Source of the DNA: Malachius bipustulatus
Taxonomy: Eukaryota; Arthropoda; Insecta; Coleoptera; Melyridae
Length of the DNA stretch: 64,000 nucleotides
Direction: 5' to 3'
NCBI GenBank assembly: GCA_910589415.1
Contig: OU342636.1
Location: forward strand, 5,996,437-6,060,436
A program made the position numbers and the translations under genes. The notes beneath the pieces are model-generated. The model saw nothing but the letters and a program-made list of their open reading frames with translations. It searched no databases and had not been told where the DNA came from. Of this stretch, positions 12,234-55,625 are shown in pieces. Each line of letters begins with the position of its first letter. Position 1 is the stretch's first letter.

Positions 12234-15200
12234 CTACGTCAGGGTCGCACCAGCTGCCGGCGCCTCTAATAGACCGCGGGCATTTGTGAGCGGAATCTCG
12301 TTACACTGCCCTCTCCTTAAAGACCTTTCGTCCCGAAAGGTAGTCCTTTCCGGACGATGTAAATATCTGCAGGCTGATCCGTTTCTGCAGCTTGATGTCT
12401 GGTAGAAGTAGCAGTCAATGGTCTTCTTTCCTCCGACCCTTCGGTTAAAGCTGCACACCAGCACGTCAATCCCCGTATGTCGGAACAGGACCTCCAACAT
12501 ACTACGGACAACACGCCAATCCAAATTATCCCTTCCATATGCCAATTTTGGTATCGCTAAGTTAGTCTCATTGCTGGCCACCATCACTTCCCTAAGTCTG
12601 GTGAGTGCATTCCATAAATCGTGGTAGGTGGGTTTTTCTTGTGACTTTTCTTTGATGACTAAGGGATAGATACTTCTTCTCACTCCACCTTTCACGTGCT
12701 CAATGCTTAGTGCGTCTCCTAACCGAGGGTTCTGCTTCCGTAGCTCATCAAGCTGGCCAAATTTTGCTCGGAAGACATTTGCGATTCCTCGGTACATCAG
12801 AAGGTCTCTTGCGACGCAATGAGCCAGGCTGTAATGCGAGGGTACTTCAAAAAGGCCACCGGGCTCCTCTCGAACCACACCAAACCGAGACCTATGTGTG
12901 CCTGTGTGCAAAGCCATGAAGTCTTCGAATGAGCAGGCGTTGTCTCGTTTGATCACCCTGGCTTCTGCTATCGGATCGTCATTGTCCCCAACATAAGGTG
13001 TTAATCGGCTGAAGTGGACAACTCTTGGTTTTCCCCTGGCCTGCTTCTGGATTCTATATACCACATCGTTGATCCTTGCTAGCACTCGATATGGACCCTC
13101 CCACGACGACTGTAGTTTTGGTGATAGACCTCGACGTCGTTGAGGATTATGAAGCCAGACCATATCTCCGGGTTGATAGCCGCCTTCCTGCGCCTTGATG
13201 TCATAAGCCTCCTTCATTCGGTCGCTAGCACCCTGTATATGAACTCGTACTCGTTCATGCATATCGTCCATCTTCTTGCGGAGCTCGCTGACGTAGTCCT
13301 CTCCAGAAACCTCTGCTCCGGGAGGGCACCCAAACTGCAAGTCGCAAGGCAACCTCAATTCTCGTCCCATTACGATCTTCGCCGGTTTTTGGCCCGTGGT
13401 TTCGTGTACGGCAGATCTGTAGGCTAACAGAAAGAGGTGCAGACATTTGTCCCAGTCTCTTTGGTGGTCAGAGACAACCTTTGATAAATATCGGTTCATG
13501 GTGCGGTTCATGCGTTCCACCATTCCATCAGATTGCGGATGCAAGGCAGTTGTTCTTGTCTTGCGTATACCCAGAAGTCTGCAGATATTTTGAAACAGGC
13601 TGGACTCAAAATTTCTACCCTGGTCGGAATGAAGCCCAAGTAACAATTTAAATGTTATTTAGTCCTGAGTATGGTTTATGAAGGTTTTATAATGGTTGGT
13701 AGAAGAGCAATTGACTTTAAAGTATCTTTATTTAAAACCAAATGTATTTCAAGTGCGTAAGGATTTATTGAACAGCCTTGCAGTATGTTTTAAAACTAAA
13801 TTATAAAACTATTTAGATTTGCTTAGGCTGATGTTTAATGATAGTTTTATGAGAACTTTTATTTTTAGTTAATAAATCCTTCTAGACTTAAAGAATCTTT
13901 TAAAGCAAGTTTGCTTTAATATGATGACAATAAAAACTCGATAGTCTTAAAAATGTTTTTTAATTGCTTTCGTAGTAATCTTGTAGGTGTTCTCAATGTC
14001 GTTTTAAAACTTTGCGTGTTCAAAAATTGTAGCCTTTATAAAATGTTCCATAAGAAGAAAGTGCCTCGCTCTAATACATATTAAATTCATTAAGTCTTAA
14101 ATAAAACCATATCTTCTTGAAAAGTTAGGTTAGGGGGAATTGTTATTATTCTATTGCAAATTGGAATTCGTGACTAGAAAAAAACAAAAAAACAGCGGTC
14201 ATTTCAAAAGAAAAACAAAAGTGATTTTAAGACTTATCAATATATGTACATAATAGTATCTCAAGAATTCAAACATCGCCATCAGTGGCACCGGCACCTG
14301 AAGAAACAGTGGTAAAATGAGAACTAACTTTTTTTAATGGAATAGAAATTTATTTAATAATAAATCTTTTATTAGGTATCTATTGTCCAACACCTTCAAT
14401 CTCCTAATAATTATGATGAACCACCTACAATTTTGCCTTTGTGTTATACACAAACACATTACCTATTTTTTAAATTGAATTGAGTGAGGAGTGAGGTTTG
14501 AGGTTATTTTGTCATTCTTCTTCTTTCTTGTTATGAATACCTATGGTCTTAAACGAGATTGTAGCATGCAGTCTTAAAACCGCATTAAAGTTATATAGTT
14601 TTAAGAGATTCTTGTCATAAAACCGTTTAGTTTTAACCAAAATTGTTGGAATTTAAACAAATCTAAGTTGTTTTGCACAGGAATATTTGTACGTCTCACT
14701 ACCTATATTAAGTATGAATATACTTAGTCCAGTCCTTACTGACTTATTCACTACCATTATAAAACCTTATCTTCTAAAGAATGATTTAAAGAAAGAATAA
14801 ATAGTATTATCACCAGAACGGCCATTTTTTTAAATATTTCATTTTAGCAAGGAGGCAGCCATTGTTCAATGTTTGCATAAAAACAAGTGAAATCCAATAA
14901 ATCCACCTAGTGTCATATTATTTCAGTATAAAAAACATTTCCCGATTGAATACACGTAATATAATTGCAGTTTTATATCAATAATGAAAATAATTTATAA
15001 TTTACCAAAATTTATTGTTTATTGAAAAACTCTTCAAATAATTTTATTCTGAGGGGGATCTTGTTTTTTGAAGCTATTTTCATATACTTCAACAGTAAAG
15101 TGTTGCTCGTTTGAAAAATTGAGAATACAAACAGCAAAAGTAGTCTCTTGCCAAGAGTATACCTACTGAACTACATATAGGTAGGTATAAGATAGCGAAA

Positions 15201-18540: not shown

Positions 18541-18618
18541 TCCGACAATGTACCACTTATTCACGGCTTCAAGTTGAAATACTTGAAATTATGAAAATCA
18601 GGAGCACAATAGTTATTT

Positions 18619-18745: not shown

Positions 18746-19030
18746 ATTAAACTTTTCATTCTCCCCTTGCCATATTGAACCACGGATTAAGAAGAAATTA
18801 GTAAAATAATACTGTAACAATTTTTACTTAATTGTTCTTCGGGTTCGTTTATCGATTGGTAAAACTCAGATCTTATTTTCAACTAATTTAATAACATTTG
18901 ACTATTTATTTTTACAACACCAAATAAGTACTACTTATCTATTTTCATTTATATTGCACCACTAATTAAGGCTTATTCTTTTATCTGTCATTTTTCGGAG
19001 AGACGCCATCCAGACGGTTACTCCGGAAAC

Positions 19031-21688
19031 CTACGTCAGGGTCGCACCAGCTGCCGGCGCCTCTAATAGACCGCGGGCATTTGTGAGCGGAATCTCGTTA
19101 CACTGCCCTCTCCTTAAAGACCTTTCGTCCCGAAAGGTAGTCCTTTCCGGACGATGTAAATATCTGCAGGCTGATCCGTTTCTGCAGCTTGATGTCTGGT
19201 AGAAGTAGCAGTCAATGGTCTTCTTTCCTCCGACCCTTCGGTTAAAGCTGCACACCAGCACGTCAATCCCCGTATGTCGGAACAGGACCTCCAACATACT
19301 ACGGACAACACGCCAATCCAAATTATCCCTTCCATATGCCAATTTTGGTATCGCTAAGTTAGTCTCATTGCTGGCCACCATCACTTCCCTGAGTCTGGTG
19401 AGTGCATTCCATAAATCGTGGTAGGTGGGTTTTTCTTGTGACTTTTCTTTGATGACTAAGTGATAGATACTTCTTCTCACTCCACCTTCCACGTGCTCAA
19501 TGCGTAGTGCGTCTCCTAACCGAGGGTTCTGCTTCCGTAGCTCATCAAGTTGGCCAAATTTTGCTCGGAAGACATTTGCGATTCCTCGGTACATCAGAAG
19601 GTCTCTTGCGACGCAATGAGCCAGGCTGTAATGCGAGGGTACTTCAAAAAGGCCACCGGGCTCCTCTCGAACCACACCAAACCGAGACCTATGTGTGCCT
19701 GTGTGCAAAGCCATGAAGTCTTCGAATGAGCAGTCGTTGTCTCGTTTGATCACCCTGGCTTCTGCTGTCGGATCGTCATTGTCCCCAACATAAGGTGTTA
19801 ATCGGTTGAAGTGGACAACTCTTGGTTTTCCCCTGGGCTGCTTCTGGATTCTATATACCACATCGTTGATCCTTGCTAGCACTCGATATGGACCCTCCCA
19901 CGACGACTGTAGTTTTGGTGATAGACCTCGACGTCGTTGAGGATTATGAAGCCAGACCATATCTCCGGGTTGATAGCCGCCTTCCTGCGCCTTGATGTCA
20001 TAAGCCTCCTTCATTCGGTCGCTAGCACCCTGTATATGAACTCGTACTCGTTCGTGCATATCGTCCATCTTCTTGCGGAGCTCGCTGACGTAGTCCTCTC
20101 CAGCAACCTCTGCTCCGGGAGGGCACCCAAACTGCAAGTCGCAAGGCAACCTCAATTCTCGTCCCATTACGATCTTCGCCGGTTTTTGGCCCGTGGTTTC
20201 GTGTACGGCAGATCTGTAGGCTAACAGAAAGAGGTGCAGACATTTGTCCCAGTCTCTTTGGTGGTCAGAGACAACCTTTGATAAATATCGGTTCATGGTG
20301 CGGTTCATGCGTTCCACCATTCCATCAGATTGCGGATGCAAGGCAGTTGTTCTTGTCTTGCGTATACCCAGAAGTCTGCAGATATTTTGAAACAGGTTGG
20401 ACTCAAAATTTCTACCCTGGTCGGAATGAAGCTCCAAAGGCACGCCAAATCGACAGACCCATTCTTTTACTAATACTTCTGCGATCGTCACAGCCTCCTG
20501 ATTCGGCAACGCATACGCTTCGACCCATTTGCTAAAATAATCCATAACGACCACGATGTACTTGCTCCCCGCCTCGCTTTCCGGGAACGGTCCAGCTACA
20601 TCGATTGCGATTCTCTCAAATGGGCTGCCTACGTTGTACTGCTTCATTGGGGCTCTCTTCCGCCTCTTGGGTCCATTGCTCGCTGCACAGGTAACGCATT
20701 TTCTGCACCAATCTTTCACGTCTTCCTTGCTGTTAACCCAGTAGAAGCGTTCTCTTAACTTGCCCAGCGTCTTCGCCACTCCAAGATGTCCGCCGGATGC
20801 GCCGTTATGCATTTCCCTGAGTACTTCAGCGACACGATTGTTAGGGACTATAATCTGCTTACGCTTCTCCCTGCCGTCTTCTCCTTCTAGGATGCGTTTC
20901 AGTATTCCATCATGGAGTATGATGGAATCCCACTGTGCCCAGTAGCACTTTACAGCCGGGGAATGTCGTGCTACCTGTTGCCAAGCTGGTCTATGGCCTG
21001 CTCTCTTCCAAGCCATCACAAGTCCTAAGACAGGGTCACCTTCTTGGTCTACTTCAATTGCTGCTAGTTGCCAGTTGTCAGACACAACCGTTGTTCTTCT
21101 GCAGAGAACAGACTCTTTTTCTTCAGCTCGCTGGCAGTGTTTGCAGTCCGGAGGACAAGGTCTTCTGGTCAAGGCGTCAGCATTCCCATGGATCTTCCCG
21201 GCACGATGCTCTGTTTCGAAGTCGAATTCCTGTAGCCTTTCGATCCATCTGGCTACCTGTCCTTCCGGGTTCTTGAATTGTAGTAGCCATTTGAGAGCTG
21301 CGTGGTCGGTCCTGAGGAGGAAGTTCCTTCCATAGAGGTATTTATAGAAGTGTTCTACCAACTTCACGACTGCCAAGAGTTCTCTGCGAGTCACACAATA
21401 ATTCCGTTCTGGCTTGGATAAAGTTTTACTGAAATACCCGATAACCCTTTCTTGGCCTCCCTGTATTTGTGACAAAACGGCACCTATTCCTACGTTGCTG
21501 GCATCTGTGTCTAAGATTTCCCTTTTTTGGTTGACGTTACGTACAACGTGCCTGATTTGCATGGTTCCTGTGGCGAACGGAGTAAACTGACGCAATGCAT
21601 CGAACATCTCTAAAGTAGCCGCATTTAAAATGTTTGCGTTGTTACAACGGTTCTTGCACATGCACATCCAAGAAAAACAAATTTGCAT
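19031..21688 (-). CDS. Ty3/gypsy RNase H-integrase fused to macrodomain and CCCH zinc finger (U2, intact)
   Basis: 885 codons, ATG start. Residues 1-56 match nothing. RNase H spans 57-175 (LDTDASNVGIGAVLSQ, RRELLAVV, RTDHAALKW, GNADAL). The integrase zinc-binding H2C2 uses H294, H301, C331 and C334. The catalytic core has D363, D423 and E459 (DD35E). A GPY/F module lies at 572-632. Residues 671-815 form a macrodomain closest in motif to TARG1/OARD1: SLAHCVARD, a GIANVFRAKFG loop, KEKSQEKPTY and AYGRDNLDW. K747 and D788 sit at the two TARG1 catalytic positions with identical 41-residue spacing. A CCCH finger follows (C827-x7-C835-x5-C841-x3-H845). Gag, protease and RT are absent. Whether it is a defective pol or a repurposed nuclear protein is open. 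Private changes: KLVEHF, DALTRRP. Confidence 0.9.
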   Translation of the reverse strand: MQICFSWMCMCKNRCNNANILNAATLEMFDALRQFTPFATGTMQIRHVVRNVNQKREILDTDASNVGIGAVLSQIQGGQERVIGYFSKTLSKPERNYCVTRRELLAVVKLVEHFYKYLYGRNFLLRTDHAALKWLLQFKNPEGQVARWIERLQEFDFETEHRAGKIHGNADALTRRPCPPDCKHCQRAEEKESVLCRRTTVVSDNWQLAAIEVDQEGDPVLGLVMAWKRAGHRPAWQQVARHSPAVKCYWAQWDSIILHDGILKRILEGEDGREKRKQIIVPNNRVAEVLREMHNGASGGHLGVAKTLGKLRERFYWVNSKEDVKDWCRKCVTCAASNGPKRRKRAPMKQYNVGSPFERIAIDVAGPFPESEAGSKYIVVVMDYFSKWVEAYALPNQEAVTIAEVLVKEWVCRFGVPLELHSDQGRNFESNLFQNICRLLGIRKTRTTALHPQSDGMVERMNRTMNRYLSKVVSDHQRDWDKCLHLFLLAYRSAVHETTGQKPAKIVMGRELRLPCDLQFGCPPGAEVAGEDYVSELRKKMDDMHERVRVHIQGASDRMKEAYDIKAQEGGYQPGDMVWLHNPQRRRGLSPKLQSSWEGPYRVLARINDVVYRIQKQPRGKPRVVHFNRLTPYVGDNDDPTAEARVIKRDNDCSFEDFMALHTGTHRSRFGVVREEPGGLFEVPSHYSLAHCVARDLLMYRGIANVFRAKFGQLDELRKQNPRLGDALRIEHVEGGVRRSIYHLVIKEKSQEKPTYHDLWNALTRLREVMVASNETNLAIPKLAYGRDNLDWRVVRSMLEVLFRHTGIDVLVCSFNRRVGGKKTIDCYFYQTSSCRNGSACRYLHRPERTTFRDERSLRRGQCNEIPLTNARGLLEAPAAGATLT

Positions 21689-21695
21689 AGCTCAC

Positions 21696-21765
21696 CCTGC
21701 CAGCGGGATCGACAATGGGCTCATATTGTCTTATCTTGTACCTAACGCTACCGTGCACCCGTTCG
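21696..21765 (-). other. Candidate 70-bp exon upstream of the integrase ORF
   Basis: Bounded by a strong acceptor (TTTTTTCTTTTAG) and a strong donor (GG|GTGAGC). One frame is open and reads ERVHGSVRYKIRQYEPIVDPAGR-like sequence (S or T at residue 6 depending on unit). It is conserved in all units that keep this part. The family is not recognised and no partner exon in the right phase was found; U8 lacks it by deletion. Confidence 0.3.
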
Positions 21766-23328: not shown

Positions 23329-23406
23329 TCCGACAATGTACCACTTATTCACGGCTTCAAGTTGAAATACTTGAAATTATGAAAATCAGGAGCACAATAG
23401 TTATTT

Positions 23407-23818: not shown

Positions 23819-26474
23819 CTACGTCAGGGTCGCACCAGCTGCCGGCGCCTCTAATAGACCGCGGGCATTTGTGAGCGGAATCTCGTTACACTGCCCTCTC
23901 CTTAAAGACCTTTCGTCCCGAAAGGTAGTCCTTTCCGGACGATGTAAATATCTGCAGGCTGATCCGTTTCTGCAGCTTAATGTCTGGTAGAAGTAGCAGT
24001 CAATGGTCTTCTTTCCTCCGACCCTTCGGTTAAAGCTGCACACCAGCACGTCAATCCCCGTATGTCGGAACAGGACCTCCAACATACTACGGACAACACG
24101 CCAATCCAAATTATCCCTTCCATATGCCAATTTTGGTATCGCTAAGTTAGTCTCATTGCTGGCCACCATCACTTCCCTGAGTCTGGTGAGTGCATTCCAT
24201 AAATCGTGGTAGGTGGGTTTTTCTTGTGACTTTTCTTTGATGACTAAGTGATAGATACTTCTTCTCACTCCACCTTCCACGTGCTCAATGCGTAGTGCGT
24301 CTCCTAACCGAGGGTTCTGCTTCCGTAGCTCATCAAGTTGGCCAAATTTTGCTCGGAAGACATTTGCGATTCCTCGGTACATCAGAAGGTCTCTTGCGAC
24401 GCAATGAGCCAGGCTGTAATGCGAGGGTACTTCAAAAAGGCCACCGGGCTCCTCTCGAACCACACCAAACCGAGACCTATGTGTGCCTGTGTGCAAAGCC
24501 ATGAAGTCTTCGAATGAGCAGTCGTTGTCTCGTTTGATCACCCTGGCTTCTGCTGTCGGATCGTCATTGTCCCCAACATAAGGTGTTAATCGGTTGAAGT
24601 GGACAACTCTTGGTTTTCCCCTGGGCTGCTTCTGGATTCTATATACCACATCGTTGATCCTTGCTAGCACTCGATATGGACCCTCCCACGACGACTGTAG
24701 TTTTGGTGATAGACCTCGACGTCGTTGAGGATTATGAAGCCAGACCATATCTCCGGGTTGATAGCCGCCTTCCTGCGCCTTGATGTCATAAGCCTCCTTC
24801 ATTCGGTCGCTAGCACCCTGTATATGAACTCGTACTCGTTCGTGCATATCGTCCATCTTCTTGCGGAGCTCGCTGACGTAGTCCTCTCCAGCAACCTCTG
24901 CTCCGGGAGGGCACCCAAACTGCAAGTCGCAAGGCAACCTCAATTCTCGTCCCATTACGATCTTCGCCGGTTTTTGGCCCGTGGTTTCGTGTACGGCAGA
25001 TCTGTAGGCTAACAGAAAGAGGTGCAGACATTTGTCCCAGTCTCTTTGGTGGTCAGAGACAACCTTTGATAAATATCGGTTCATGGTGCGGTTCATGCGT
25101 TCCACCATTCCATCAGATTGCGGATGCAAGGCAGTTGTTCTTGTCTTGCGTATACCCAGAAGTCTGCAGATATTTTGAAGCAGGTTGGACTCAAAATTTC
25201 TACCCTGGTCGGAATGAAGCTCCAAAGGCACGCCAAATCGACAGACCCATTCTTTTACTAATACTTCTGCGATCGTCACAGCCTCCTGATTCGGCAACGC
25301 ATACGCTTCGACCCATTTGCTAAAATAATCCATAACGACCACGATGCACTTGTTCCCCGCCTCGCTTTCCGGGAACGGTCCAGCTACATCGATTGCGATT
25401 CTCTCAAATGGGCTGCCTAGGTTGTACTGCTTCATTGGGGCTCTCTTCCGCCTCTGGGGCCCATTGCTCGCTGCACAGGTAACGCATTTTCTGCACCAAT
25501 CTTTCACGTCTTCCTTGCTGTTAACCCAGTAGAAGCGTTCTCTTAACTTGCCCAGCGTCTTCGCCACTCCAAGATGTCCGCCGGATGCGCCGTTATGCAT
25601 TTCCCTGAGTACTTCAGCGACACGATTGTTAGGGACTATAATCTGCTTACGCTTCTCCCTGCCGTCTTCTCCTTCTAGGATGCGTTTCAGTATTCCATCA
25701 TGGAGTATGATGGAATCCCACTGTGCCCAGTAGCACTTTACAGCCGGGGAATGTCGTGCTACCTGTTGCCAAGCTGGTCTATGGCCTGCTCTCTTCCAAG
25801 CCATCACAAGTCCTAAGACAGGGTCACCTTCTTGGTCTACTTCAATTGCTGCTAGTTGCCAGTTGTCAGACACAACCGTTGTTCTTCTGCAGAGAACAGA
25901 CTCTTTTTCTTCAGCTCTGGCTGTGTTTGCAGTCCGGAGGACAAGGTCTTCTGGACAAGGCGTCAGCATTCCCATGGATCTTCCCGGCACGATGCTCTGT
26001 TTCGAAGTCGAATTCCTGTAGCCTTTCGATCCATCTGGCTACCTGTCCTTCCGGGTTCTTGAATTGTAGTAGCCATTTGAGAGCTGCGTGGTCGGTCCTG
26101 AGGAGGAAGTTCCTTCCATAGAGGTATTTATAGAAGTGTTCTACCGACTTCACGACTGCCAAGAGTTCTCTGCGAGTCACACAATAATTCCGTTCTGGCT
26201 TGGATAAAGTTTTACTGAAATACCCGATAACCCTTTCTTGGCCTCCCTGTATTTGTGACAAAACGGCACCTATTCCTACGTTGCTGGCATCTGTGTCTAA
26301 GATTTCCCTTTTTTGGTTGACGTTACGTACAACGTGCCTGATTTGCATGGTTCCTGTGGCGAACGGAGTAAACTGACGCAATGCATCGAACATCTCTAAA
26401 GTAGCCGCATTTAAAATGTTAGCGTTGTTACAACTGTTCTTGCACATGCACATCCAAGAAATACAAATTTGCAT
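23819..26474 (-). pseudogene. RNase H-integrase-macrodomain-CCCH ORF, frameshifted (U3)
   Basis: A net 2-bp loss at about 25913-25924, just after the RNase H (between PDCKH and AEEKE), splits the ORF into 25911-26474 and 23819-25990. The integrase, macrodomain and CCCH parts are otherwise complete; SSCRNG reads LSCRNG in the zinc finger without touching a ligand. Confidence 0.9.
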
Positions 26475-29475: not shown

Positions 29476-32133
29476 CTACGTCAGGGTCGCACCAGCTGCC
29501 GGCGCCTCTAATAGACCGCGGGCATTTGTGAGCGGAATCTCGTTACACTGCCCTCTCCTTAAAGACCTTTCGTCCCGAAAGGTAGTCCTTTCCGGACGAT
29601 GTAAATATCTGCAGGCTGATCCGTTTCTGCAGCTTGATGTCTGGTAGAAGTAGCAGTCAATGGTCTTCTTTCCTCCGACCCTTCGGTTAAAGCTGCACAC
29701 CAGCACGTCAATCCCCGTATGTCGGAACAGGACCTCCAACATACTACGGACAACAAGCCAATCCAAATTATCCCTTCCATATGCCAATTTTGGTATCGCT
29801 AAGTTAGTCTCATTGCTGGCCACCATCACTTCCCTGAGTCTGGTGAGTGCATTCCATAAATCGTGGTAGGTGGGTTTTTCTTGTGACTTTTCTTTGATGA
29901 CTAAGTGATAGATACTTCTTCTCACTCCACCTTCCACGTGCACAATGCGTAGTGCGTCTCCTAACCGAGGGTTCTGCTTCCGTAGCTCATCAAGTTGACC
30001 AAATTTTGCTCGGAAGACATTTGCGATTCCTCGGTACATCAGAAGGTCTCTTGCGACGCAATGAGCCAGGCTGTAATGCGAGGGTACTTCAAAAAGGCCA
30101 CCGGGCTCCTCTCGAACCACACCAAACCGAGACCTATGTGTGCCTGTGTGCAAAGCCATGAAGTCTTCGAATGAGCAGTCGTTGTCTCGTTTGATCACCC
30201 TGGCTTCTGCTGTCGGATCGTCATTGTCCCCAACATAAGGTGTTAATCGGTACAAGTGGACAACTCTTGGTTTTCCCCTGGGCTGCTTCTGGATTCTATA
30301 TACCACATCGTTGATCCTTGCTAGCACTCGATATGGACCCTCCCACGACGACTGTAGTTTTGGTGATAGACCTCGACGTCGTTGAGGATTATGAAGCCAG
30401 ACCATATCTCCGGGTTGATAGCCGCCTTCCTGCGCCTTGATGTCATAAGCCTCCTTCATTCGGTCGCTAGCACCCTGTATATGAACTCGTACTCGTTCGT
30501 GCATATCGTCCATCTTCTTGCGGAGCTCGCTGACGTAGTCCTCTCCAGCAACCTCTGCTCCGGGAGGGCACCCAAACTGCAAGTCGCAAGGCAACCTCAA
30601 TTCTCGTCCCATTACGATCTTCGTCGGTTTTTGGCCCGTGGTTTCGTGTACGGCAGATCTGTAGGCTAACAGAAAGAGGTGCAGACATTTGTCCCAGTCT
30701 CTTTGGTGGTCAGAGACAACCTTTGATAAATATCGGTTCATGGTGCGGTTCATGCGTTCCACCATTCCATCAGATTGCGGATGCAAGGCAGTTGTTCTTG
30801 TTGTGCGTATACCCAGAAGTCTGCAGATATTTTGAAACAGGTTGGACTCAAAATTTCTACCCTGGTCGGAATGAAGCTCCAAAGGCACGCCAAATCGACA
30901 GACCCATTCTTTTACTAATACTTCTGCGATCGTCACAGCCTCCTGATTCGGCAACGCATACGCTTCGACCCATTTGCTAAAATAATCCATAACGACCACG
31001 ATGCACTTGTTCCCCGCCTCGCTTTCCGGGAACGGTCCAGCTACATCGATTGCGATTCTCTCAAATGGGCTGCCTACGTTGTACTGCTTCATTGGGGCTC
31101 TCTTCCGCCTCTGGGGTCCATTGCTCGCTGCACAGGTAACGCATTTTCTGCACCAATCTTTCACGTCTTCCTTGCTGTTAACCCAGTAGAAGCGTTCTCT
31201 TAACTTGCCCAGCGTCTTCGCCACTCCAAGATGTCCGCCGGATGCGCCGTTATGCATTTCCCTGAGTACTTCAGCGACACGATTTTTAGGGACTATAATC
31301 TGCTTACGCTTCTCCCTGCCGTCTTCTCCTTCTAGGATGCGTTTCAGTATTCCATCATGGAGTATGATGGAATCCCACTGTGCCCAGTAGCACTTTACAG
31401 CCGGGGAATGTCGTGCTACCTGTTGAAAAGCTGGTCTATGGCCTGCTCTCTTCCAAGCCATCACAAGTCCTAAGACAGGGTCACCTTCTTGGTCTACTTC
31501 AATTGCTGCTAGTTGCCAGTTGTCAGACACAACCGTTGTTCTTCTGCAGAGAACAGACTCTTTTTCTTCAGCTCGCTGGCAGTGTTTGCAGTCCGGAGGA
31601 CAAGGTCTTCTGGACAAGGCGTCAGCATTCCCATGGATCTTCCCGGCACGATGCTCTGTTTCGAAGTCGAATTCCTGTAGCCTTTCGATCCATCTGGCTA
31701 CCTGTCCTTCCGGGTTCTTGAATTGTAGTAGCCATTTGAGAGCTGCGTGGTCGGTCCTGAGGAGGAAGTTCCTTCCATAGAGGTATTTATAGAAGTGTTC
31801 TACCGACTTCACGACTGCCAAGAGTTCTCTGCGAGTCACACAATAATTCCGTTCTGGCTTGGATAAAGTTTTACTGAAATACCCGATAACCCTTTCTTGG
31901 CCTCCCTGTATTTGTGACAAAACGGCACCTATTCCTACGTTGCTGGCATCTGTGTCTAAGATTTCCCTTTTTTGGTTGACGTTACGTACAACGTGCCTGA
32001 TTTGCATGGTTCCTGTGGCGAACGGAGTAAACTGACGCAATGCATCGAACATCTCTAAAGTAGCCGCATTTAAAATGTTAGCGTTGTTACAACTGTTCTT
32101 GCACATGCACATCCAAGAAATACAAATTTGCAT
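29476..32133 (-). CDS. RNase H-integrase-macrodomain-CCCH ORF, intact (U4)
   Basis: 885 codons, B-subfamily reference. All catalytic and zinc-ligand residues named for the U2 copy are kept, including the macrodomain Lys and Asp. Private change: VPKNRVAE. The leader upstream, where a promoter could lie, is interrupted by the hAT element. Confidence 0.9.
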   Translation of the reverse strand: MQICISWMCMCKNSCNNANILNAATLEMFDALRQFTPFATGTMQIRHVVRNVNQKREILDTDASNVGIGAVLSQIQGGQERVIGYFSKTLSKPERNYCVTRRELLAVVKSVEHFYKYLYGRNFLLRTDHAALKWLLQFKNPEGQVARWIERLQEFDFETEHRAGKIHGNADALSRRPCPPDCKHCQRAEEKESVLCRRTTVVSDNWQLAAIEVDQEGDPVLGLVMAWKRAGHRPAFQQVARHSPAVKCYWAQWDSIILHDGILKRILEGEDGREKRKQIIVPKNRVAEVLREMHNGASGGHLGVAKTLGKLRERFYWVNSKEDVKDWCRKCVTCAASNGPQRRKRAPMKQYNVGSPFERIAIDVAGPFPESEAGNKCIVVVMDYFSKWVEAYALPNQEAVTIAEVLVKEWVCRFGVPLELHSDQGRNFESNLFQNICRLLGIRTTRTTALHPQSDGMVERMNRTMNRYLSKVVSDHQRDWDKCLHLFLLAYRSAVHETTGQKPTKIVMGRELRLPCDLQFGCPPGAEVAGEDYVSELRKKMDDMHERVRVHIQGASDRMKEAYDIKAQEGGYQPGDMVWLHNPQRRRGLSPKLQSSWEGPYRVLARINDVVYRIQKQPRGKPRVVHLYRLTPYVGDNDDPTAEARVIKRDNDCSFEDFMALHTGTHRSRFGVVREEPGGLFEVPSHYSLAHCVARDLLMYRGIANVFRAKFGQLDELRKQNPRLGDALRIVHVEGGVRRSIYHLVIKEKSQEKPTYHDLWNALTRLREVMVASNETNLAIPKLAYGRDNLDWLVVRSMLEVLFRHTGIDVLVCSFNRRVGGKKTIDCYFYQTSSCRNGSACRYLHRPERTTFRDERSLRRGQCNEIPLTNARGLLEAPAAGATLT

Positions 32134-35135: not shown

Positions 35136-37794
35136 CTACGTCAGGGTCGCACCAGCTGCCGGCGCCTCTAATAGACCGCGGGCATTTGTGAGCGGAATCT
35201 CGTTACACTGCCCTCTCCTTAAAGACCTTTCGTCCCGAAAGGTAGTCCTTTCCGGACGATGTAAATATCTGCAGGCTGATCCGTTTCTGCAGCTTGATGT
35301 CTGGTAGAAGTAGCAGTCAATGGTCTTCTTTCCTCCGACCCTTCGGTTAAAGCTGCACACCAGCACGTCAATCCCCGTATGTCGGAACAGGACCTCCAAC
35401 ATACTACGGACAACAAGCCAATCCAAATTATCCCTTCCATATGCCAATTTTGGTATCGCTAAGTTAGTCTCATTGCTGGCCACCATCACTTCCCTGAGTC
35501 TGGTGAGTGCATTCCATAAATCGTGGTAGGTGGGTTTTTCTTGTGACTTTTCTTTGATGACTAAGTGATAGATACTTCTTCTCACTCCACCTTCCACGTG
35601 CACAATGCGTAGTGCGTCTCCTAACCGAGGGTTCTGCTTCCGTAGCTCATCAAGTTGACCAAATTTTGCTCGGAAGACATTTGCGATTCCTCGGTACATC
35701 AGAAGGTCTCTTGCGACGCAATGAGCCAGGCTGTAATGCGAGGGTACTTCAAAAAGGCCACCGGGCTCCTCTCGAACCACACCAAACCGAGACCTATGTG
35801 TGCCTGTGTGCAAAGCCATGAAGTCTTCGAATGAGCAGTCGTTGTCTCGTTTGATCACCCTGGCTTCTGCTGTCGGATCGTCATTGTCCCCAACATAAGG
35901 TGTTAATCGGTACAAGTGGACAACTCTTGGTTTTCCCCTGGGCTGCTTCTGGATTCTATATACCACATCGTTGATCCTTGCTAGCACTCGATATGGACCC
36001 TCCCACGACGACTGTAGTTTTGGTGATAGACCTCGACGTCGTTGAGGATTATGAAGCCAGACCATATCTCCGGGTTGATAGCCGCCTTCCTGCGCCTTGA
36101 TGTCATAAGCCTCCTTCATTCGGTCGCTAGCACCCTGTATATGAACTCGTACTCGTTCGTGCATATCGTCCATCTTCTTGCGGAGCTCGCTGACGTAGTC
36201 CTCTCCAGCAACCTCTGCTCCGGGAGGGCACCCAAACTGCAAGTCGCAAGGCAACCTCAATTCTCGTCCCATTACGATCTTCGTCGGTTTTTGGCCCGTG
36301 GTTTCGTGTACGGCAGATCTGTAGGCTAACAGAAAGAGGTGCAGACATTTGTCCCAGTCTCTTTGGTGGTCAGAGACAACCTTTGATAAATATCGGTTCA
36401 TGGTGCGGTTCATGCGTTCCACCATTCCATCAGATTGCGGATGCAAGGCAGTTGTTCTTGTTGTGCGTATACCCAGAAGTCTGCAGATATTTTGAAACAG
36501 GTTGGACTCAAAATTTCTACCCTGGTCGGAATGAAGCTCCAAAGGCACGCCAAATCGACAGACCCATTCTTTTACTAATACTTCTGCGATCGTCACAGCC
36601 TCCTGATTCGGCAACGCATACGCTTCGACCCATTTGCTAAAATAATCCATAACGACCACGATGCACTTGCTCCCCGCCTCGCTTTCCGGGAACGGTCCAG
36701 CTACATCGATTGCGATTCTCTCAAATGGGCTGCCTACGTTGTACTGCTTCATTGGGGCTCTCTTCCGCCTCTGGGGTCCATTGCTCGCTGCACAGGTAAC
36801 GCATTTTCTGCACCAATCTTTCACGTCTTCCTTGCTGTTAACCCAGTAGAAGCGTTCTCTTAACTTGCCCAGCGTCTTCGCCACTCCAAGATGTCCGCCG
36901 GATGCGCCGTTATGCATTTCCCTGAGTACTTCAGCGACACGATTGTTAGGGACTATAATCTGCTTACGCTTCTCCCTGCCGTCTTCTCCTTCTAGGATGC
37001 GTTTCAGTATTCCATCATGGAGTATGATGGAATCCCACTGTGCCCAGTAGCACTTTACAGCCGGGGAATGTCGTGCTACCTGTTGAAAAGCTGGTCTATG
37101 GCCTGCTCTCTTCCAAGCCATCACAAGTCCTAAGACAGGGTCACCTTCTTGGTCTACTTCAATTGCTGCTAGTTGCCAGTTGTCAGACACAACCGTTGTT
37201 CTTCTGCAGAGAACAGACTCTTTTTCTTCAGCTCGCTGGCAGTGTTTGCAGTCCGGAGGACAAGGTCTTCTGGACAAGGCGTCAGCATTCCCATGGATCT
37301 TCCCGGCACGATGCTCTGTTTCGCAGTCGAATTCCTGTAGCCTTTCGATCCATCTGGCTACCTGTCCCTTCCGGGTTCTTGAATTGTAGTAGCCATTTGA
37401 GAGCTGCGGGGTCGGTCCTGAGGAGGAAGTTCCTTCCATAGAGGTATTTATAGAAGTGTTCTACCGACTTCACGACTGCCAAGAGTTCTCTGCGAGTCAC
37501 ACAATAATGCCGTTCTGGCTTGGATAAAGTTTTACTGAAATACCCGATAACCCTTTCTTGGCCTCCCTGTATTTGTGACAAAACGGCACCTATTCCTACG
37601 TTGCTGGCATCTGTGTCTAAGATTTCCCTTTTTTGGTTGACGTTACGTACAACGTGCCTGATTTGCATGGTTCCTGTGGCGAACGGAGTAAACTGACGCA
37701 ATGCATCGAACATCTCTAAAGTAGCCGCATTTAAAATGTTTGCGTTGTTACAACGGTTCTTGCACATGCACATCCAAGAAATACAAATTTGCAT
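35136..37794 (-). pseudogene. RNase H-integrase-macrodomain-CCCH ORF, frameshifted (U5)
   Basis: One extra C in a CCC run at 37366-37368, inside the RNase H after FKNPEG, splits the ORF into 37282-37794 and 35136-37439. RNase H also reads RTDPAAL in place of RTDHAAL. Integrase to CCCH is open for more than 700 codons. Confidence 0.9.
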
Positions 37795-40796: not shown

Positions 40797-43454
40797 CTAC
40801 GTCAGGGTCGCACCAGCTGCCGGCGCCTCTAATAGACCGCGGGCATTTGTGAGCGGAATCTCGTTACACTGCCCTCTCCTTAAAGACCTTTCGTCCCGAA
40901 AGGTAGTCCTTTCCGGACGATGTAAATATCTGCAGGCTGATCCGTTTCTGCAGCTTGATGTCTGGTAGAAGTAGCAGTCAATGGTCTTCTTTCCTCCGAC
41001 CCTTCGGTTAAAGCTGCACACCAGCACGTCAATCCCCGTATGTCGGAACAGGACCTCCAACATACTACGGACAACAAGCCAATCCAAATTATCCCTTCCA
41101 TATGCCAATTTTGGTATCGCTAAGTTAGTCTCATTGCTGGCCACCATCACTTCCCTGAGTCTGGTGAGTGCATTTCATAAATCGTGGTAGGTGGGTTTTT
41201 CTTGTGACTTTTCTTTGATGACTAAGTGATAGATACTTCTTCTCACTCCACCTTCCACGTGCACAATGCGTAGTGCGTCTCCTAACCGAGGGTTCTGCTT
41301 CCGTAGCTCATCAAGTTGACCAAATTTTGCTCGGAAGACATTTGCGATTCCTCGGTACATCAGAAGGTCTCTTGCGACGCAATGAGCCAGGCTGTAATGC
41401 GAGGGTACTTCAAAAAGGCCACCGGGCTCCTCTCGAACCACACCAAACCGAGACCTATGTGTGCCTGTGTGCAAAGCCATGAAGTCTTCGAATGAGCAGT
41501 CGTTGTCTCGTTTGATCACCCTGGCTTCTGCTGTCGGATCGTCATTGTCCCCAACATAAGGTGTTAATCGGTACAAGTGGACAACTCTTGGTTTTCCCCT
41601 GGGCTGCTTCTGGATTCTATATACCACATCGTTGATCCTTGCTAGCACTCGATATGGACCCTCCCACGACGACTGTAGTTTTGGTGATAGACCTCGACGT
41701 CGTTGAGGATTATGAAGCCAGACCATATCTCCGGGTTGATAGCCGCCTTCCTGCGCCTTGATGTCATAAGCCTCCTTCATTCGGTCGCTAGCACCCTGTA
41801 TATGAACTCGTACTCGTTCGTGCATATCGTCCATCTTCTTGCGGAGCTCGCTGACGTAGTCCTCTCCAGCAACCTCTGCTCCGGGAGGGCACCCAAACTG
41901 CAAGTCGCAAGGCAACCTCAATTCTCGTCCCATTACGATCTTCGTCGGTTTTTGGCCCGTGGTTTCGTGTACGGCAGATCTGTAGGCTAACAGAAAGAGG
42001 TGCAGACATTTGTCCCAGTCTCTTTGGTGGTCAGAGACAACCTTTGATAAATATCGGTTCATGGTGCGGTTCATGCGTTCCACCATTCCATCAGATTGCG
42101 GATGCAAGGCAGTTGTTCTTGTTGTGCGTATACCCAGAAGTCTGCAGATATTTTGAAACAGGTTGGACTCAAAATTTCTACCCTGGTCGGAATGAAGCTC
42201 CAAAGGCACGCCAAATCGACAGACCCATTCTTTTACTAATACTTCTGCGATCGTCACAGCCTCCTGATTCGGCAACGCATACGCTTCGACCCATTTGCTA
42301 AAATAATCCATAACGACCACGATGTACTTGCTCCCCGCCTCGCTTTCCGGGAACGGTCCAGCTACATCGATTGCGATTCTCTCAAATGGGCTGCCTACGT
42401 TGTACTGCTTCATTGGGGCTCTCTTCCGCCTCTGGGGTCCATTGCTCGCTGCACAGGTAACGCATTTTCTGCACCAATCTTTCACGTCTTCCTTGCTGTT
42501 AACCCAGTAGAAGCGTTCTCTTAACTTGCCCAGCGTCTTCGCCACTCCAAGATGTCCGCCGGATGCGCCGTTATGCATTTCCCTGAGTACTTCAGCGACA
42601 CGATTGTTAGGGACTATAATCTGCTTACGCTTCTCCCTGCCGTCTTCTCCTTCTAGGATGCGTTTCAGTATTCCATCATGGAGTATGATGGAATCCCACT
42701 GTGCCCAGTAGCACTTTACAGCCGGGGAATGTCGTGCTACCTGTTGAAAAGCTGGTCTATGGCCTGCTCTCTTCCAAGCCATCACAAGTCCTAAGACAGG
42801 GTCACCTTCTTGGTCTACTTCAATTGCTGCTAGTTGCCAGTTGTCAGACACAACCGTTGTTCTTCTGCAGAGAACAGACTCTTTTTCTTCAGCTCGCTGG
42901 CAGTGTTTGCAGTCCGGAGGACAAGGTCTTCTGGACAAGGCGTCAGCATTCCCATGGATCTTCCCGGCACGATGCTCTGTTTCGAAGTCGAATTCCTGTA
43001 GCCTTTCGATCCATCTGGCTACCTGTCCTTCCGGGTTCTTGAATTGTAGTAGCCATTTGAGAGCTGCGTGGTCGGTCCTGAGGAGGAAGTTCCTTCCATA
43101 GAGGTATTTATAGAAGTGTTCTACCGACTTCACGACTGCCAAGAGTTCTCTGCGAGTCACACAATAATGCCGTTCTGGCTTGGATAAAGTTTTACTGAAA
43201 TACCCGATAACCCTTTCTTGGCCTCCCTGTATTTGTGACAAAACGGCACCTATTCCTACGTTGCTGGCATCTGTGTCTAAGATTTCCCTTTTTTGGTTGA
43301 CGTTACGTACAACGTGCCTGATTTGCATGGTTCCTGTGGCGAACGGAGTAAACTGACGCAATGCATCGAACATCTCTAAAGTAGCCGCATTTAAAATGTT
43401 TGCGTTGTTACAACGGTTCTTGCACATGCACATCCAAGAAATACAAATTTGCAT
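40797..43454 (-). pseudogene. RNase H-integrase-macrodomain-CCCH ORF, nonsense in macrodomain (U6)
   Basis: The Trp after PTYHDL has become TGA (41175-41177), cutting the protein at 759 residues, between the macrodomain catalytic Lys and Asp. The rest reads on to the normal stop. RNase H and integrase are complete, so a product of this copy would be an integrase without a working macrodomain or zinc finger. Confidence 0.9.
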
Positions 43455-46417: not shown

Positions 46418-49075
46418 CTACGTCAGGGTCGCACCAGCTGCCGGCGCCTCTAATAGACCGCGGGCATTTGTGAGCGGAATCTCGTTACACTGCCCTCTCC
46501 TTAAAGACCTTTCGTCCCGAAAGGTAGTCCTTTCCGGACGATGTAAATATCTGCAGGCTGATCCGTTTCTGCAGCTTGATGTCTGGTAGAAGTAGCAGTC
46601 AATGGTCTTCTTTCCTCCGACCCTTCGGTTAAAGCTGCACACCAGCACGTCAATCCCCGTATGTCGGAACAGGACCTCCAACATACTACGGACAACAAGC
46701 CAATCCAAATTATCCCTTCCATATGCCAATTTTGGTATCGCTAAGTTAGTCTCATTGCTGGCCACCATCACTTCCCTGAGTCTGGTGAGTGCATTCCATA
46801 AATCGTGGTAGGTGGGTTTTTCTTGTGACTTTTCTTTGATGACTAAGTGATAGATACTTCTTCTCACTCCACCTTCCACGTGCACAATGCGTAGTGCGTC
46901 TCCTAACCGAGGGTTCTGCTTCCGTAGCTCATCAAGTTGACCAAATTTTGCTCGGAAGACATTTGCGATTCCTCGGTACATCAGAAGGTCTCTTGCGACG
47001 CAATGAGCCAGGCTGTAATGCGAGGGTACTTCAAAAAGGCCACCGGGCTCCTCTCGAACCACACCAAACCGAGACCTATGTGTGCCTGTGTGCAAAGCCA
47101 TGAAGTCTTCGAATGAGCAGTCGTTGTCTCGTTTGATCACCCTGGCTTCTGCTGTCGGATCGTCATTGTCCCCAACATAAGGTGTTAATCGGTACAAGTG
47201 GACAACTCTTGGTTTTCCCCTGGGCTGCTTCTGGATTCTATATACCACATCGTTGATCCTTGCTAGCACTCGATATGGACCCTCCCACGACGACTGTAGT
47301 TTTGGTGATAGACCTCGACGTCGTTGAGGATTATGAAGCCAGACCATATCTCCGGGTTGATAGCCGCCTTCCTGCGCCTTGATGTCATAAGCCTCCTTCA
47401 TTCGGTCGCTAGCACCCTGTATATGAACTCGTACTCGTTCGTGCATATCGTCCATCTTCTTGCGGAGCTCGCTGACGTAGTCCTCTCCAGCAACCTCTGC
47501 TCCGGGAGGGCACCCAAACTGCAAGTCGCAAGGCAACCTCAATTCTCGTCCCATTACGATCTTCGTCGGTTTTTGGCCCGTGGTTTCGTGTACGGCAGAT
47601 CTGTAGGCTAACAGAAAGAGGTGCAGACATTTGTCCCAGTCTCTTTGGTGGTCAGAGACAACCTTTGATAAATATCGGTTCATGGTGCGGTTCATGCGTT
47701 CCACCATTCCATCAGATTGCGGATGCAAGGCAGTTGTTCTTGTTGTGCGTATACCCAGAAGTCTGCAGATATTTTGAAACAGGTTGGACTCAAAATTTCT
47801 ACCCTGGTCGGAATGAAGCTCCAAAGGCACGCCAAATCGACAGACCCATTCTTTTACTAATACTTCTGCGATCGTCACAGCCTCCTGATTCGGCAACGCA
47901 TACGCTTCGACCCATTTGCTAAAATAATCCATAACGACCACGATGTACTTGCTCCCCGCCTCGCTTTCCGGGAACGGTCCAGCTACATCGATTGCGATTC
48001 TCTCAAATGGGCTGCCTACGTTGTACTGCTTCATTGGGGCTCTCTTCCGCCTCTGGGGTCCATTGCTCGCTGCACAGGTAACGCATTTTCTGCACCAATC
48101 TTTCACGTCTTCCTTGCTGTTAACCCAGTAGAAGCGTTCTCTTAACTTGCCCAGCGTCTTCGCCACTCCAAGATGTCCGCCGGATGCGCCGTTATGCATT
48201 TCCCTGAGTACTTCAGCGACACGATTGTTAGGGACTATAATCTGCTTACGCTTCTCCCTGCCGTCTTCTCCTTCTAGGATGCGTTTCAGTATTCCATCAT
48301 GGAGTATGATGGAATCCCACTGTGCCCAGTAGCACTTTACAGCCGGGGAATGTCGTGCTACCTGTTGCCAAGCTGGTCTATGGCCTGCTCTCTTCCAAGC
48401 CATCACAAGTCCTAAGACAGGGTCACCTTCTTGGTCTACTTCAATTGCTGCTAGTTGCCAGTTGTCAGACACAACCGTTGTTCTTCTGCAGAGAACAGAC
48501 TCTTTTTCTTCAGCTCGCTGGCAGTGTTTGCAGTCCGGAGGACAAGGTCTTCTGGACAAGGCGTCAGCATTCCCATGGATCTTCCCGGCACGATGCTCTG
48601 TTTCGAAGTCGAATTCCTGTAGCCTTTCGATCCATCTGGCTACCTGTCCTTCCGGGTTCTTGAATTGTAGTAGCCATTTGAGAGCTGCGTGGTCGGTCCT
48701 GAGGAGGAAGTTCCTTCCATAGAGGTATTTATAGAAGTGTTCTACCGACTTCACGACTGCCAAGAGTTCTCTGCGAGTCACACAATAATTCCGTTCTGGC
48801 TTGGATAAAGTTTTACTGAAATACCCGATAACCCTTTCTTGGCCTCCCTGTATTTGTGACAAAACGACACCTATTCCTACGTTGCTGGCATCTGTGTCTA
48901 AGATTTCCCTTTTTTGGTTGACGTTACGTACAACGTGCCTGATTTGCATGGTTCCTGTGGCGAACGGAGTAAACTGACGCAATGCATCGAACATCTCTAA
49001 AGTAGCCGCATTTAAAATGTTAGCGTTGTTACAACTGTTCTTGCACATGCACATCCAAGAAATACAAATTTGCAT
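46418..49075 (-). CDS. RNase H-integrase-macrodomain-CCCH ORF, intact (U7)
   Basis: 885 codons, all catalytic and ligand residues present. Mosaic: RTTRTTA, LYRL, RIVHV and LVVRSM in the C-terminal half match U4-U6, but AWQQ in the linker after RNase H matches the A units. Private change: GIGVVLSQ in RNase H. Confidence 0.9.
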   Translation of the reverse strand: MQICISWMCMCKNSCNNANILNAATLEMFDALRQFTPFATGTMQIRHVVRNVNQKREILDTDASNVGIGVVLSQIQGGQERVIGYFSKTLSKPERNYCVTRRELLAVVKSVEHFYKYLYGRNFLLRTDHAALKWLLQFKNPEGQVARWIERLQEFDFETEHRAGKIHGNADALSRRPCPPDCKHCQRAEEKESVLCRRTTVVSDNWQLAAIEVDQEGDPVLGLVMAWKRAGHRPAWQQVARHSPAVKCYWAQWDSIILHDGILKRILEGEDGREKRKQIIVPNNRVAEVLREMHNGASGGHLGVAKTLGKLRERFYWVNSKEDVKDWCRKCVTCAASNGPQRRKRAPMKQYNVGSPFERIAIDVAGPFPESEAGSKYIVVVMDYFSKWVEAYALPNQEAVTIAEVLVKEWVCRFGVPLELHSDQGRNFESNLFQNICRLLGIRTTRTTALHPQSDGMVERMNRTMNRYLSKVVSDHQRDWDKCLHLFLLAYRSAVHETTGQKPTKIVMGRELRLPCDLQFGCPPGAEVAGEDYVSELRKKMDDMHERVRVHIQGASDRMKEAYDIKAQEGGYQPGDMVWLHNPQRRRGLSPKLQSSWEGPYRVLARINDVVYRIQKQPRGKPRVVHLYRLTPYVGDNDDPTAEARVIKRDNDCSFEDFMALHTGTHRSRFGVVREEPGGLFEVPSHYSLAHCVARDLLMYRGIANVFRAKFGQLDELRKQNPRLGDALRIVHVEGGVRRSIYHLVIKEKSQEKPTYHDLWNALTRLREVMVASNETNLAIPKLAYGRDNLDWLVVRSMLEVLFRHTGIDVLVCSFNRRVGGKKTIDCYFYQTSSCRNGSACRYLHRPERTTFRDERSLRRGQCNEIPLTNARGLLEAPAAGATLT

Positions 49076-53500: not shown

Positions 53501-55625
53501 ATTAAACTTTTCATTCTCCCCTTGCCATATTTAACCACGGATTAAGAAGAAATTAGTAAAATAATACTGTAACAATTTTTACTTAATTGTTCTTCGGGTT
53601 CGTTTATCGATTGGTAAAACTCAGATCTTATTTTCAACTAATTTAATAACATTTGACTATTTATTTTTACAACACCAAATAAGTACTACTTATCTATTTT
53701 CATTTATATTGCACCACTAATTACGGCTTATTCTTTTATCTGTCATTTTTCGGAGAGACGCCATCCAGACGGTTACTCCGGAAACCTACGTCAGGGTCGC
53801 ACCAGCTGCCGGCGCCTCTAATAGACCGCGGGCATTTGTGAGCGGAATCTCGTTACACTGCCCTCTCCTTAAAGACCTTTCGTCCCGAAAGGTAGTCCTT
53901 TCCGGACGATGTAAATATCTGCAGGCTGATCCGTTTCTGCAGCTTGATGTCTGGTAGAAGTAGCAGTCAATGGTCTTCTTTCCTCCGACCCTTCGGTTAA
54001 AGCTGCACACCAGCACGTCAATCCCCGTATGTCGGAACAGGACCTCCAACATACTACGGACAACACGCCAATCCAAATTATCCCTTCCATATGCCAATTT
54101 TGGTATCGCTAAGTTAGTCTCATTGCTGGCCACCATCACTTCCCTGAGTCTGGTGAGTGCATTCCATAAATCGTGGTAGGTGGGTTTTTCTTGTGACTTT
54201 TCTTTGATGACTAAGTGATAGATACTTCTTCTCACTCCACCTTCCACGTGCTCAATGCGTAGTGCGTCTCCTAACCGAGGGTTCTGCTTCCGTAGCTCAT
54301 CAAGTTGACCAAATTTTGCTCGGAAGACATTTGCGATTCCTCGGTACATCAGAAGGTCTCTTGCGACGCAATGAGCCAGGCTGTAATGCGAGGGTACTTC
54401 AAAAAGGCCACCGGGCTCCTCTCGAACCACACCAAACCGAGACCTATGTGTGCCTGTGTGCAAAGCCATGAAGTCTTCGAATGAGCAGTCGTTGTCTCGT
54501 TTGATCACCCTGGCTTCTGCTGTCGGATCGTCATTGTCCCCAACATAAGGTGTTAATCGGTTGAAGTGGACAACTCTTGGTTTTCCCCTGGGCTGCTTCT
54601 GGATTCTATATACCACATCGTTGATCCTTGCTAGCACTCGATATGGACCCTCCCACGACGACTGTAGTTTTGGTGATAGACCTCGACGTTGTTGAGGATT
54701 ATGAAGCCAGACCATATCTCCGGGTTGATAGCCGCCTTCCTGCGCCTTGATGTCATAAGCCTCCTTCATTCGGTCGCTAGCACCCTGTATATGAACTCGT
54801 ACTCGTTCGTGCATATCGTCCATCTTCTTGCGGAGCTCGCTGACGTAGTCCTCTCCAGCAACCTCTTCTCCGGGAGGGCACCCAAACTGCAAGTCGCAAG
54901 GCAACCTCAATTCTCGTCCCATTACGATCTTCGCCGGTTTTTGGCCCGTGGTTTCGTGTACGGCAGATCTGTAGGCTAACAGAAAGAGGTGCAGACATTT
55001 GTCCCAGTCTCTTTGGTGGTCAGAGACAACCTTTGATAAATATTGGTTCATGGTGCGGTTCATGCGTTCCACCATTCCATCAGATTGCGGATGCAAGGCA
55101 GTTGTTCTTGTCTTGCGTATACCCAGAAGTCTGCAGATATTTTGAAACAGGTTGGACTCAAAATTTCTACACTGGTCGGAATGAAGCTCCAAAGGCACGC
55201 CAAATCGACAGACCCATTCTTTTACTAATACTTCTGCGATCGTCACAGCCTCCTGATTCGGCAACGCATACGCTTCGACCCATTTGCTAAAATAATCCAT
55301 AACGACCACGATGCACTTGTTCCCCGCCTCGCTTTCCGGGAACGGTCCAGCTACATCGATTGCGATTCTCTCAAATGGGCTGCCTACGTTGTACTGCTTC
55401 ATTGGGGCTCTCTTCCGCCTCTGGGGTCCATTGCTCGCTGCACAGGTAACGCATTTTCTGCACCAATCTTTCACGTCTTCCTTGCTGTTAACCCAGTAGA
55501 AGCGTTCTCTTAACTTGCCCAGCGTCTTCGCCACTCCAAGATGTCCGCCGGATGCGCCGTTATGCATTTCCCTGAGTACTTCAGCGACACGATTGTTAGG
55601 GACTATTTAGTAGTAGTATGGTGGG

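What the first reader, a model, noticed from the sequence alone, without database searches (positions are those of the whole stretch)
19031..21688. Ty3/gypsy integrase fused to a TARG1/OARD1-like macrodomain
Seen: after the GPY/F module, residues 671-815 contain SLAHCVARD, GIANVFRAKFG, KEKSQEKPTY and AYGRDNLDW. In human TARG1 (OARD1) the corresponding motifs carry catalytic K84 and D125. Here K747 and D788 occupy those places with the same 41-residue spacing. Known: TARG1 removes ADP-ribose from glutamate. Inference: the integrase may reverse or read ADP-ribosylation at sites of DNA breakage or chromatin, aiding integration or evading PARP-based defence. The domain is open in three full copies and most broken ones. 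I do not know whether this fusion has been described.
Basis: partly seen in the sequence, partly recalled or inferred. Interest (0 to 1): 0.88.

Follow-up and report, generated by a model that had tools for sequence, protein, structure and literature searches.

The report
Retrotransposon integrase fused to TARG1-like macrodomain
A jumping-gene family, seen so far mainly in beetles, carries at the end of its DNA-inserting enzyme a relative of an animal enzyme that strips ADP-ribose tags from proteins and DNA ends, which suggests that the element edits the cell's DNA-damage signal where it inserts.

Summary

The window copies are 5'-truncated fragments in a tandem array. Elsewhere in the genome, gag, protease, RT, RNase H, integrase, macrodomain and CCCH finger lie in order in 2 of 6 dispersed copies, both with frame changes; one has LTRs 99% alike. 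The domain occurs in seven named beetle genera and forms one supported set with unnamed sequences and one leafhopper protein. A related family in the same genome lacks it in 4 of 4 loci read. Between dispersed copies it is under purifying selection (pN/pS 0.29; linker 0.74).

Caution: in this species the residue matching TARG1 D20 is glycine. Most likely an integrase-linked ADP-ribose eraser; activity is untested. Fish retroviruses with macro-domain ORFs are a precedent (PMC4977317, passages).

The parts
19031..21688 (-). 885-aa ORF of the finding: ~57 residues without match in the other element copies, then RNase H, integrase, GPY/F, linker, macrodomain, CCCH finger
18809..21517 (-). stretch that matches the 3' part of dispersed element copies (96% to L012 and L009): 5'-truncated element
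21224..21526 (-). RNase H (residues 55-155)
   Evidence: PF17917 E 3.7e-33
20339..20848 (-). integrase H2C2 zinc-binding and DDE core (residues 281-450)
   Evidence: PF17921 and PF00665, Ty3-G Gag-Pol 7q5b E 1.5e-52
19769..19966 (-). GPY/F module (residues 575-640)
   Evidence: PF24626 and PF22938; strands
19679..19768 (-). linker (residues 641-670): low-confidence stretch, then a helix with motif FEDFM
   Evidence: residues 641-675 pN/pS 0.74
19244..19678 (-). TARG1/OARD1-like macrodomain (residues 671-815)
19448..19450 (-). K747, aligned with catalytic TARG1 K84
19325..19327 (-). D788, aligned with catalytic TARG1 D125
19652..19654 (-). G679, aligned with TARG1 D20 (Asp in the six other element families compared)
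19154..19210 (-). CCCH zinc finger ligands C827, C835, C841, H845
   Evidence: PF00642 E 2e-4, 21.6 bits against cut-off 20.5
18813..19102 (-). 3' LTR of the unit; the ORF ends inside it
   Evidence: 89.5% to the L009 LTR
12432..12884 (-). macrodomain copy, open
24017..24469 (-). macrodomain copy, open
29674..30126 (-). macrodomain copy, open, in a full 885-aa ORF
35334..35786 (-). macrodomain copy, open
40995..41447 (-). macrodomain copy with one stop
46616..47068 (-). macrodomain copy, open, in a full 885-aa ORF
53984..54436 (-). macrodomain copy, open
63015..63467 (-). macrodomain copy, open

Best explanation
A Ty3/gypsy LTR retrotransposon lineage took up an animal TARG1-type macrodomain at the C-terminus of its integrase, at the place where chromoviruses carry a chromodomain, together with a CCCH zinc finger. 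Shown: homology, predicted fold, dyad residues, position behind GPY/F, presence in one element with gag and RT, one supported set across beetle genera, purifying selection between dispersed copies. Inferred: the domain is an active (ADP-ribosyl)hydrolase held at the integration complex by a flexible linker. There it would remove mono-ADP-ribose, or whole chains, from glutamate/aspartate or from DNA ends that host PARPs modify at the nicks left by strand transfer or on linear cDNA, and so blunt PARP signalling or free the integrase; the CCCH finger would hold RNA or single-stranded DNA. In the species of the window the residue matching TARG1 D20 is lost, so its copies may bind or hydrolyse differently.
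Against: No activity was measured. The D20-equivalent is Gly in 9 of 9 window copies and 6 of 6 dispersed copies, and the L124-equivalent is Arg in the same copies; Arg there also occurs in Callosobruchus P0144. Pfam's Macro model does not reach E 0.1 in the window ORF or in P0129, and is below its cut-off in P0001, P0127, P0019 and P0123; it passes in P0140. Within the window array pN/pS is 0.83 for the macrodomain and 1.99 for integrase on few changes, so the array copies show no constraint. L009 and L012 both have frame changes in pol, so no copy with all genes open was seen among the six.
Confidence: 0.5

Rival explanations
1. One reading: the macrodomain binds ADP-ribosylated chromatin or proteins and steers integration, as a chromodomain does, with no need for hydrolysis.
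For: Same place as the chromodomain, which lies at the integrase C-terminus in chromoviruses (PMC3605345, passages). A low-confidence linker separates it from GPY/F. Altered pocket residues in this species.
Against: The catalytic dyad is kept in nearly every copy, which reading alone would not need. Loss of the D20-equivalent would be expected to weaken binding too (recalled, not tested).
Confidence: 0.25
2. Released accessory protein: the protease cuts the macrodomain-CCCH part off the integrase and it acts on its own against ADP-ribosylation-based or RNA-based defence, like viral macrodomains.
For: About 20 low-confidence residues before the domain. MacroD-type domains of several RNA viruses are active hydrolases, and ADP-ribosylation is tied to the antiviral response (PMC7050489 passages). 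ZAP restricts retrotransposition (PMC4441479, title and listing only); that ZAP is a PARP-family protein is recalled.
Against: No cleavage site was tested. In P0001, P0127 and P0129 the domain is in one frame with integrase.
Confidence: 0.18
3. Passenger: the domain was captured and persists without function.
For: pN/pS near 1 inside the window array; altered pocket residues in this species.
Against: pN/pS 0.29 between dispersed copies, like integrase and unlike the linker. Dyad kept among families 50-63% identical to the window domain.
Confidence: 0.06

Closest known systems
TARG1/OARD1/C6orf130 (ALC1-like macrodomain hydrolase of animals)
   Same: Sequence, predicted fold, Lys/Asp dyad
   Different: Fused to an integrase and followed by a CCCH finger; in this species the D20-equivalent is Gly and the loop is (C/Y/S)GRD instead of CGLD
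Chromoviruses (Ty3/gypsy with a chromodomain behind GPY/F)
   Same: Extra domain at the integrase C-terminus after GPY/F
   Different: Enzyme-type macrodomain in place of a chromodomain; no chromodomain found by Pfam
Fish epsilon-like endogenous retroviruses with macro-domain ORFs (Basta et al. 2009, as cited in PMC4977317)
   Same: Retroelement that took up a macro domain
   Different: There described as additional open reading frames; here joined in frame to a Ty3 integrase. The original paper was not held, so the type of macrodomain there was not checked
DarG antitoxin macrodomain
   Different: About 20% identity; keeps only the lysine of the dyad (PMC9411070, passages)

Membership tests
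TARG1/OARD1 (ALC1-like macrodomain) | Macrodomain fold of the minimal ALC1-like type | tested here: met
TARG1/OARD1 (ALC1-like macrodomain) | Sequence closer to TARG1 than to other macrodomains of known structure | tested here: met
   TARG1 E 4.5e-22, next macrodomain 5m3i E 0.96
TARG1/OARD1 (ALC1-like macrodomain) | Lys84/Asp125 dyad | tested here: met
   roles from PMC9411070 and PMC7050489 passages
TARG1/OARD1 (ALC1-like macrodomain) | Asp20-equivalent on the adenine side (role recalled) | tested here: not met
   Gly in 9 of 9 window and 6 of 6 dispersed copies; Asp in the six other element families among the first seven rows of A2. I do not treat it as defining, as 5 of 41 rows carry Asn
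TARG1/OARD1 (ALC1-like macrodomain) | Hydrolysis of acyl-linked ADP-ribose | not testable with these tools
   needs a biochemical assay
Ty3/gypsy LTR retrotransposon (Metaviridae) | Gene order PR-RT-RNase H-integrase with GPY/F | tested here: met
   P0001, P0127, P0129; L009 and L012; 7q5b match. The clade within Ty3/gypsy was not worked out
Ty3/gypsy LTR retrotransposon (Metaviridae) | Paired LTRs, short target-site duplication, purine tract | tested here: met
   L009: 296-nt repeats with 3 differences; ATAA duplication and purine tract by my reading of the printed flanks. One LTR match per window unit, 9 in all
Chromovirus | Chromodomain behind integrase | tested here: not met
   no chromodomain hit up to E 0.1 in the 17 proteins scanned, 3 of which are other elements

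The most novel reading that the evidence does not exclude
A retroelement integrase that carries its own ADP-ribose eraser: captured once from a TARG1 gene of an insect, kept in beetle lineages as distant as longhorn beetles, pollen beetles and fireflies, and used inside the integration complex to remove PARP-laid ADP-ribose at the DNA breaks that integration makes. In one species the pocket has since been remodelled under selection for another ligand or substrate.
Probability: 0.4. Interest if true: 0.86.

Novelty: new variant of a known kind. Interest (0 to 1): 0.72.

Why it matters
How integrating elements cope with the PARP response to the breaks they make is, as far as I know, little understood. 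An integrase fused to a TARG1-type eraser would make that link direct and testable in vitro. It also adds an enzyme to the domains recruited at the integrase C-terminus, and may explain why public databases hold beetle entries named OARD1-like or cleavage-and-polyadenylation factor that look like pieces of retrotransposons.

Tried and rejected
Chance resemblance: rejected. Fusion made only by a chimeric local ORF: rejected, as the fusion is in three different 1372-1379 aa ORFs, in Aromia, Molorchus and Gonioctena proteins and in dispersed copies. Selection read from the window array alone: misleading; the array copies show no constraint, the dispersed copies do.

Led nowhere: viral-contig scan with A1, 44 stretches matched a pattern, none confirmed. 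The host TARG1 gene of this genome was not found, because that search did not complete; the donor of the domain rests on the tree alone. Literature: searches gave no paper. Searches (5 listed of 5; 20 of 41; 2 of 2; 20 of 93; 12 of 1,537) showed no title or abstract start on an integrase-macrodomain fusion; I did not read those papers, apart from passages of PMC4977317 and PMC2577118. Only open-licence PMC text was searched. Basta et al. 2009 and two TARG1 papers are not held.

Limits: rows come mostly from Aromia, so they are not independent; 11 of the 137 proteins were dropped there for incomplete coverage. One search used 7 of 11 integrase copies, 9 of 9 macrodomain copies and 6 of 9 RNase H copies (partial or gapped ones left out) and rests on 2 to 4 synonymous changes each. 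The tree has few columns, its bootstrap had not settled, and its rows are 93 representatives of 240 domains. The CCCH label needs 6 changes on the tree, at least 3 of them forced by starred forks; I ascribe this to short gene models and one lost cysteine, not tested further. The binomial test used site numbers that I put in by hand and ignores transition bias. The D20 role and human residue numbers are recalled; the alignment is. That Molorchus, Gonioctena, Callosobruchus and Diabrotica are beetles is recalled; Aromia, Brassicogethes and Aquatica were looked up.

Full report
WHAT IS THERE. The finding's ORF lies on the minus strand, 21688 to 19031, 885 aa. Pfam finds RNase H (55-155), integrase H2C2 (281-338), integrase core (356-449), GPY/F-type C-terminal modules (575-633) and a CCCH zinc finger (823-845, E 2e-4, above its cut-off), but no Macro hit at E 0.1. 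The RNase H-integrase part matches the Ty3-G Gag-Pol structure 7q5b at E 1.5e-52. Residues 677-812 match human TARG1/OARD1 at E 4.5e-22, 81.9 bits. K747 and D788 stand at the places of TARG1 K84 and D125 (numbering recalled; roles from PMC9411070 passages).

THE WINDOW COPIES ARE FRAGMENTS. Ten repeat copies in the window are spaced 5,660-5,661 bases four times, 4,786-4,788 twice, and 2,541, 6,797 and 9,069 once each. In the unit of the finding the part shared with other element copies is 18809-21517 (96% to L012 and L009): it begins inside RNase H and ends with one LTR. The first ~57 residues of the ORF therefore lie outside it. With tblastn no gag, protease or RT of this family was found in the window; one 29% match to pol at 1948-3180 belongs to another element. 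There are 9 macrodomain copies, 8 of 9 open. Within the array pN/pS is 1.99 for integrase (2 synonymous, 14 non-synonymous changes), 0.83 for the macrodomain (4, 11 and one stop) and 0.85 for RNase H (3, 9): no sign of constraint, on few changes.

ELEMENTS WITH ALL GENES. The genome (unnamed, 544 Mb) gave 54 matches in one search, a lower bound. The six macrodomain-bearing places outside contig C7 were fetched. In 2 of 6, L009 and L012, gag, protease, RT, RNase H-integrase, macrodomain and CCCH lie in order; both have frame changes, one in RT for L009 and several for L012. L014 has parts of gag with RNase H-integrase and macrodomain, and stops. L010, L011 and L013 gave no gag, protease or RT match. 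L009 has direct repeats of 296 nt with 3 differences. By my reading of the printed flanks the LTR ends are TGTAAC and GTTACA, with a 4-bp duplication ATAA and a purine tract before the 3' LTR. Pol ends inside the 3' LTR, so the C-terminal motif RRGQC reads the purine tract and the LTR start; a match to it occurs in 114 of 257 proteins collected.

RELATIVES. Protein searches gave 110, 111 and 456 proteins (best 120 listed). The fusion with integrase or other pol parts is seen in Aromia moschata, Molorchus minor and Gonioctena quinquepunctata, and in three unnamed 1372-1379 aa ORFs with protease, RT, RNase H, integrase, macrodomain and CCCH. Aquatica leii proteins P0155 and P0190 carry what I read as integrase remnants next to macrodomain pieces. 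Brassicogethes P0139 and Callosobruchus P0144 and P0148 carry the macrodomain and the RRGQC tail; the CCCH pattern is met in P0144 and P0148, not in P0139. In a tree of 93 macrodomains, 18 rows form one set with support 100/99: the window, 7 rows from named beetles, 1 leafhopper row (Macrosteles; no integrase seen), 9 unnamed; 13 of 18 have the CCCH pattern. The set stands beside three unnamed macrodomains (90/81, not starred) in a 36-row group that also holds fly OARD1 proteins (81/88, not starred). This fits one capture from an insect TARG1 but does not prove it.

GAIN AT A DEFINED PLACE. 36 of the 54 matches are 58-62% identical and end at residues 640-660. I read 4 of these 36: none has a macrodomain by tblastn, and the frame meets a stop within about 15 codons of the GPY/F module. 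The macrodomain and finger were thus most likely added where chromoviruses carry a chromodomain (PMC3605345 passages). No tree of pol was made, so loss in the related family is not excluded.

SELECTION. Between the window copy and six dispersed copies, pooled pN/pS is 0.29 for the macrodomain, 0.35 for integrase 430-640, 0.47 for the CCCH part and 0.74 for the linker. L009 against L012: 11 synonymous and 11 non-synonymous changes in the macrodomain where 17.0 non-synonymous are expected under neutrality, p 0.0046; integrase p 0.021; linker p 0.66. The pairs in the pooled values are not independent, and pairs within a subfamily reach ratios near 1 on few changes.

RESULTS AGAINST. In this species the D20-equivalent is glycine in 9 of 9 window copies and 6 of 6 dispersed copies and the loop reads (C/Y/S)GRD instead of CGLD. 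In the 41-row alignment that place is D 30, N 5, S 1, G 1, gap 4. So this species may have a remodelled or weakened pocket, while the six other families compared keep Asp. Because selection still holds the domain, decay is not the simplest reading.

MECHANISM. TARG1 interacts with PARP1, hydrolyses O-acyl-ADPr, ADPr phosphoesters at nucleic-acid ends and modified proteins, and releases whole polymers (PMC7050489, passages and section 17). An integrase-borne domain of this kind would sit where PARPs could act on integration intermediates or cDNA ends. This step is inference. I put the eraser reading at 0.5, reader/tether at 0.25, released accessory protein at 0.18 and passenger at 0.06. The architecture itself I hold at about 0.98.

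NOVELTY. I found no paper on an integrase-macrodomain fusion in the listings (open-licence PMC only, lists partly capped). A review says that some fish epsilon-like retroviral sequences include additional ORFs for macro domain proteins, citing Basta et al. 2009 (PMC4977317, passages; original not held). Hence a new variant of a known kind: a retroelement that recruited a macrodomain, here as part of integrase.

Noticed in passing
window 10833-63806: Tandem array of truncated element units (ten repeat copies). In the unit read, about 2 kb (21518-23596) does not match the element copies, and an imperfect palindrome of ~130 nt recurs at 18618-18746 and 23406-23534.
   Followed up: partly
window 55698-59307: Non-LTR retrotransposon with an endonuclease ORF and an RT-RNase H ORF, lying between array units.
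   Followed up: no
window 783-4599: Pieces of other retroelements: an RT ORF (783-1400), an RT ORF 29% identical to P0001 pol (1933-3204), and a neighbouring ORF that I take for gag without Pfam support (3448-4599).
   Followed up: no
P0028, P0092: Aromia gene models that join the macrodomain piece to sequences tagged PF00151 and PF00067 (lipase and cytochrome P450, names recalled); probably annotation artefacts, possibly exonised element copies.
   Followed up: no
P0142, P0146: Leafhopper (Macrosteles) proteins named OARD1-like; P0142 falls in the beetle-element set of the tree, so horizontal transfer or an older element lineage is possible.
   Followed up: partly
L013: LTR matches on both sides (139-435 and 2891-3189) of a copy that begins in RNase H, as if the middle of the element were deleted.
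   Followed up: no
P0114 and related entries: Public entries of element pol pieces are named cleavage and polyadenylation specificity factor or C3H1-type domain protein, probably because of the CCCH finger.
   Followed up: no
PMC7050489 section 17: The review writes Glu125 for the TARG1 dyad residue that PMC9411070 gives as Asp125.
   Followed up: no
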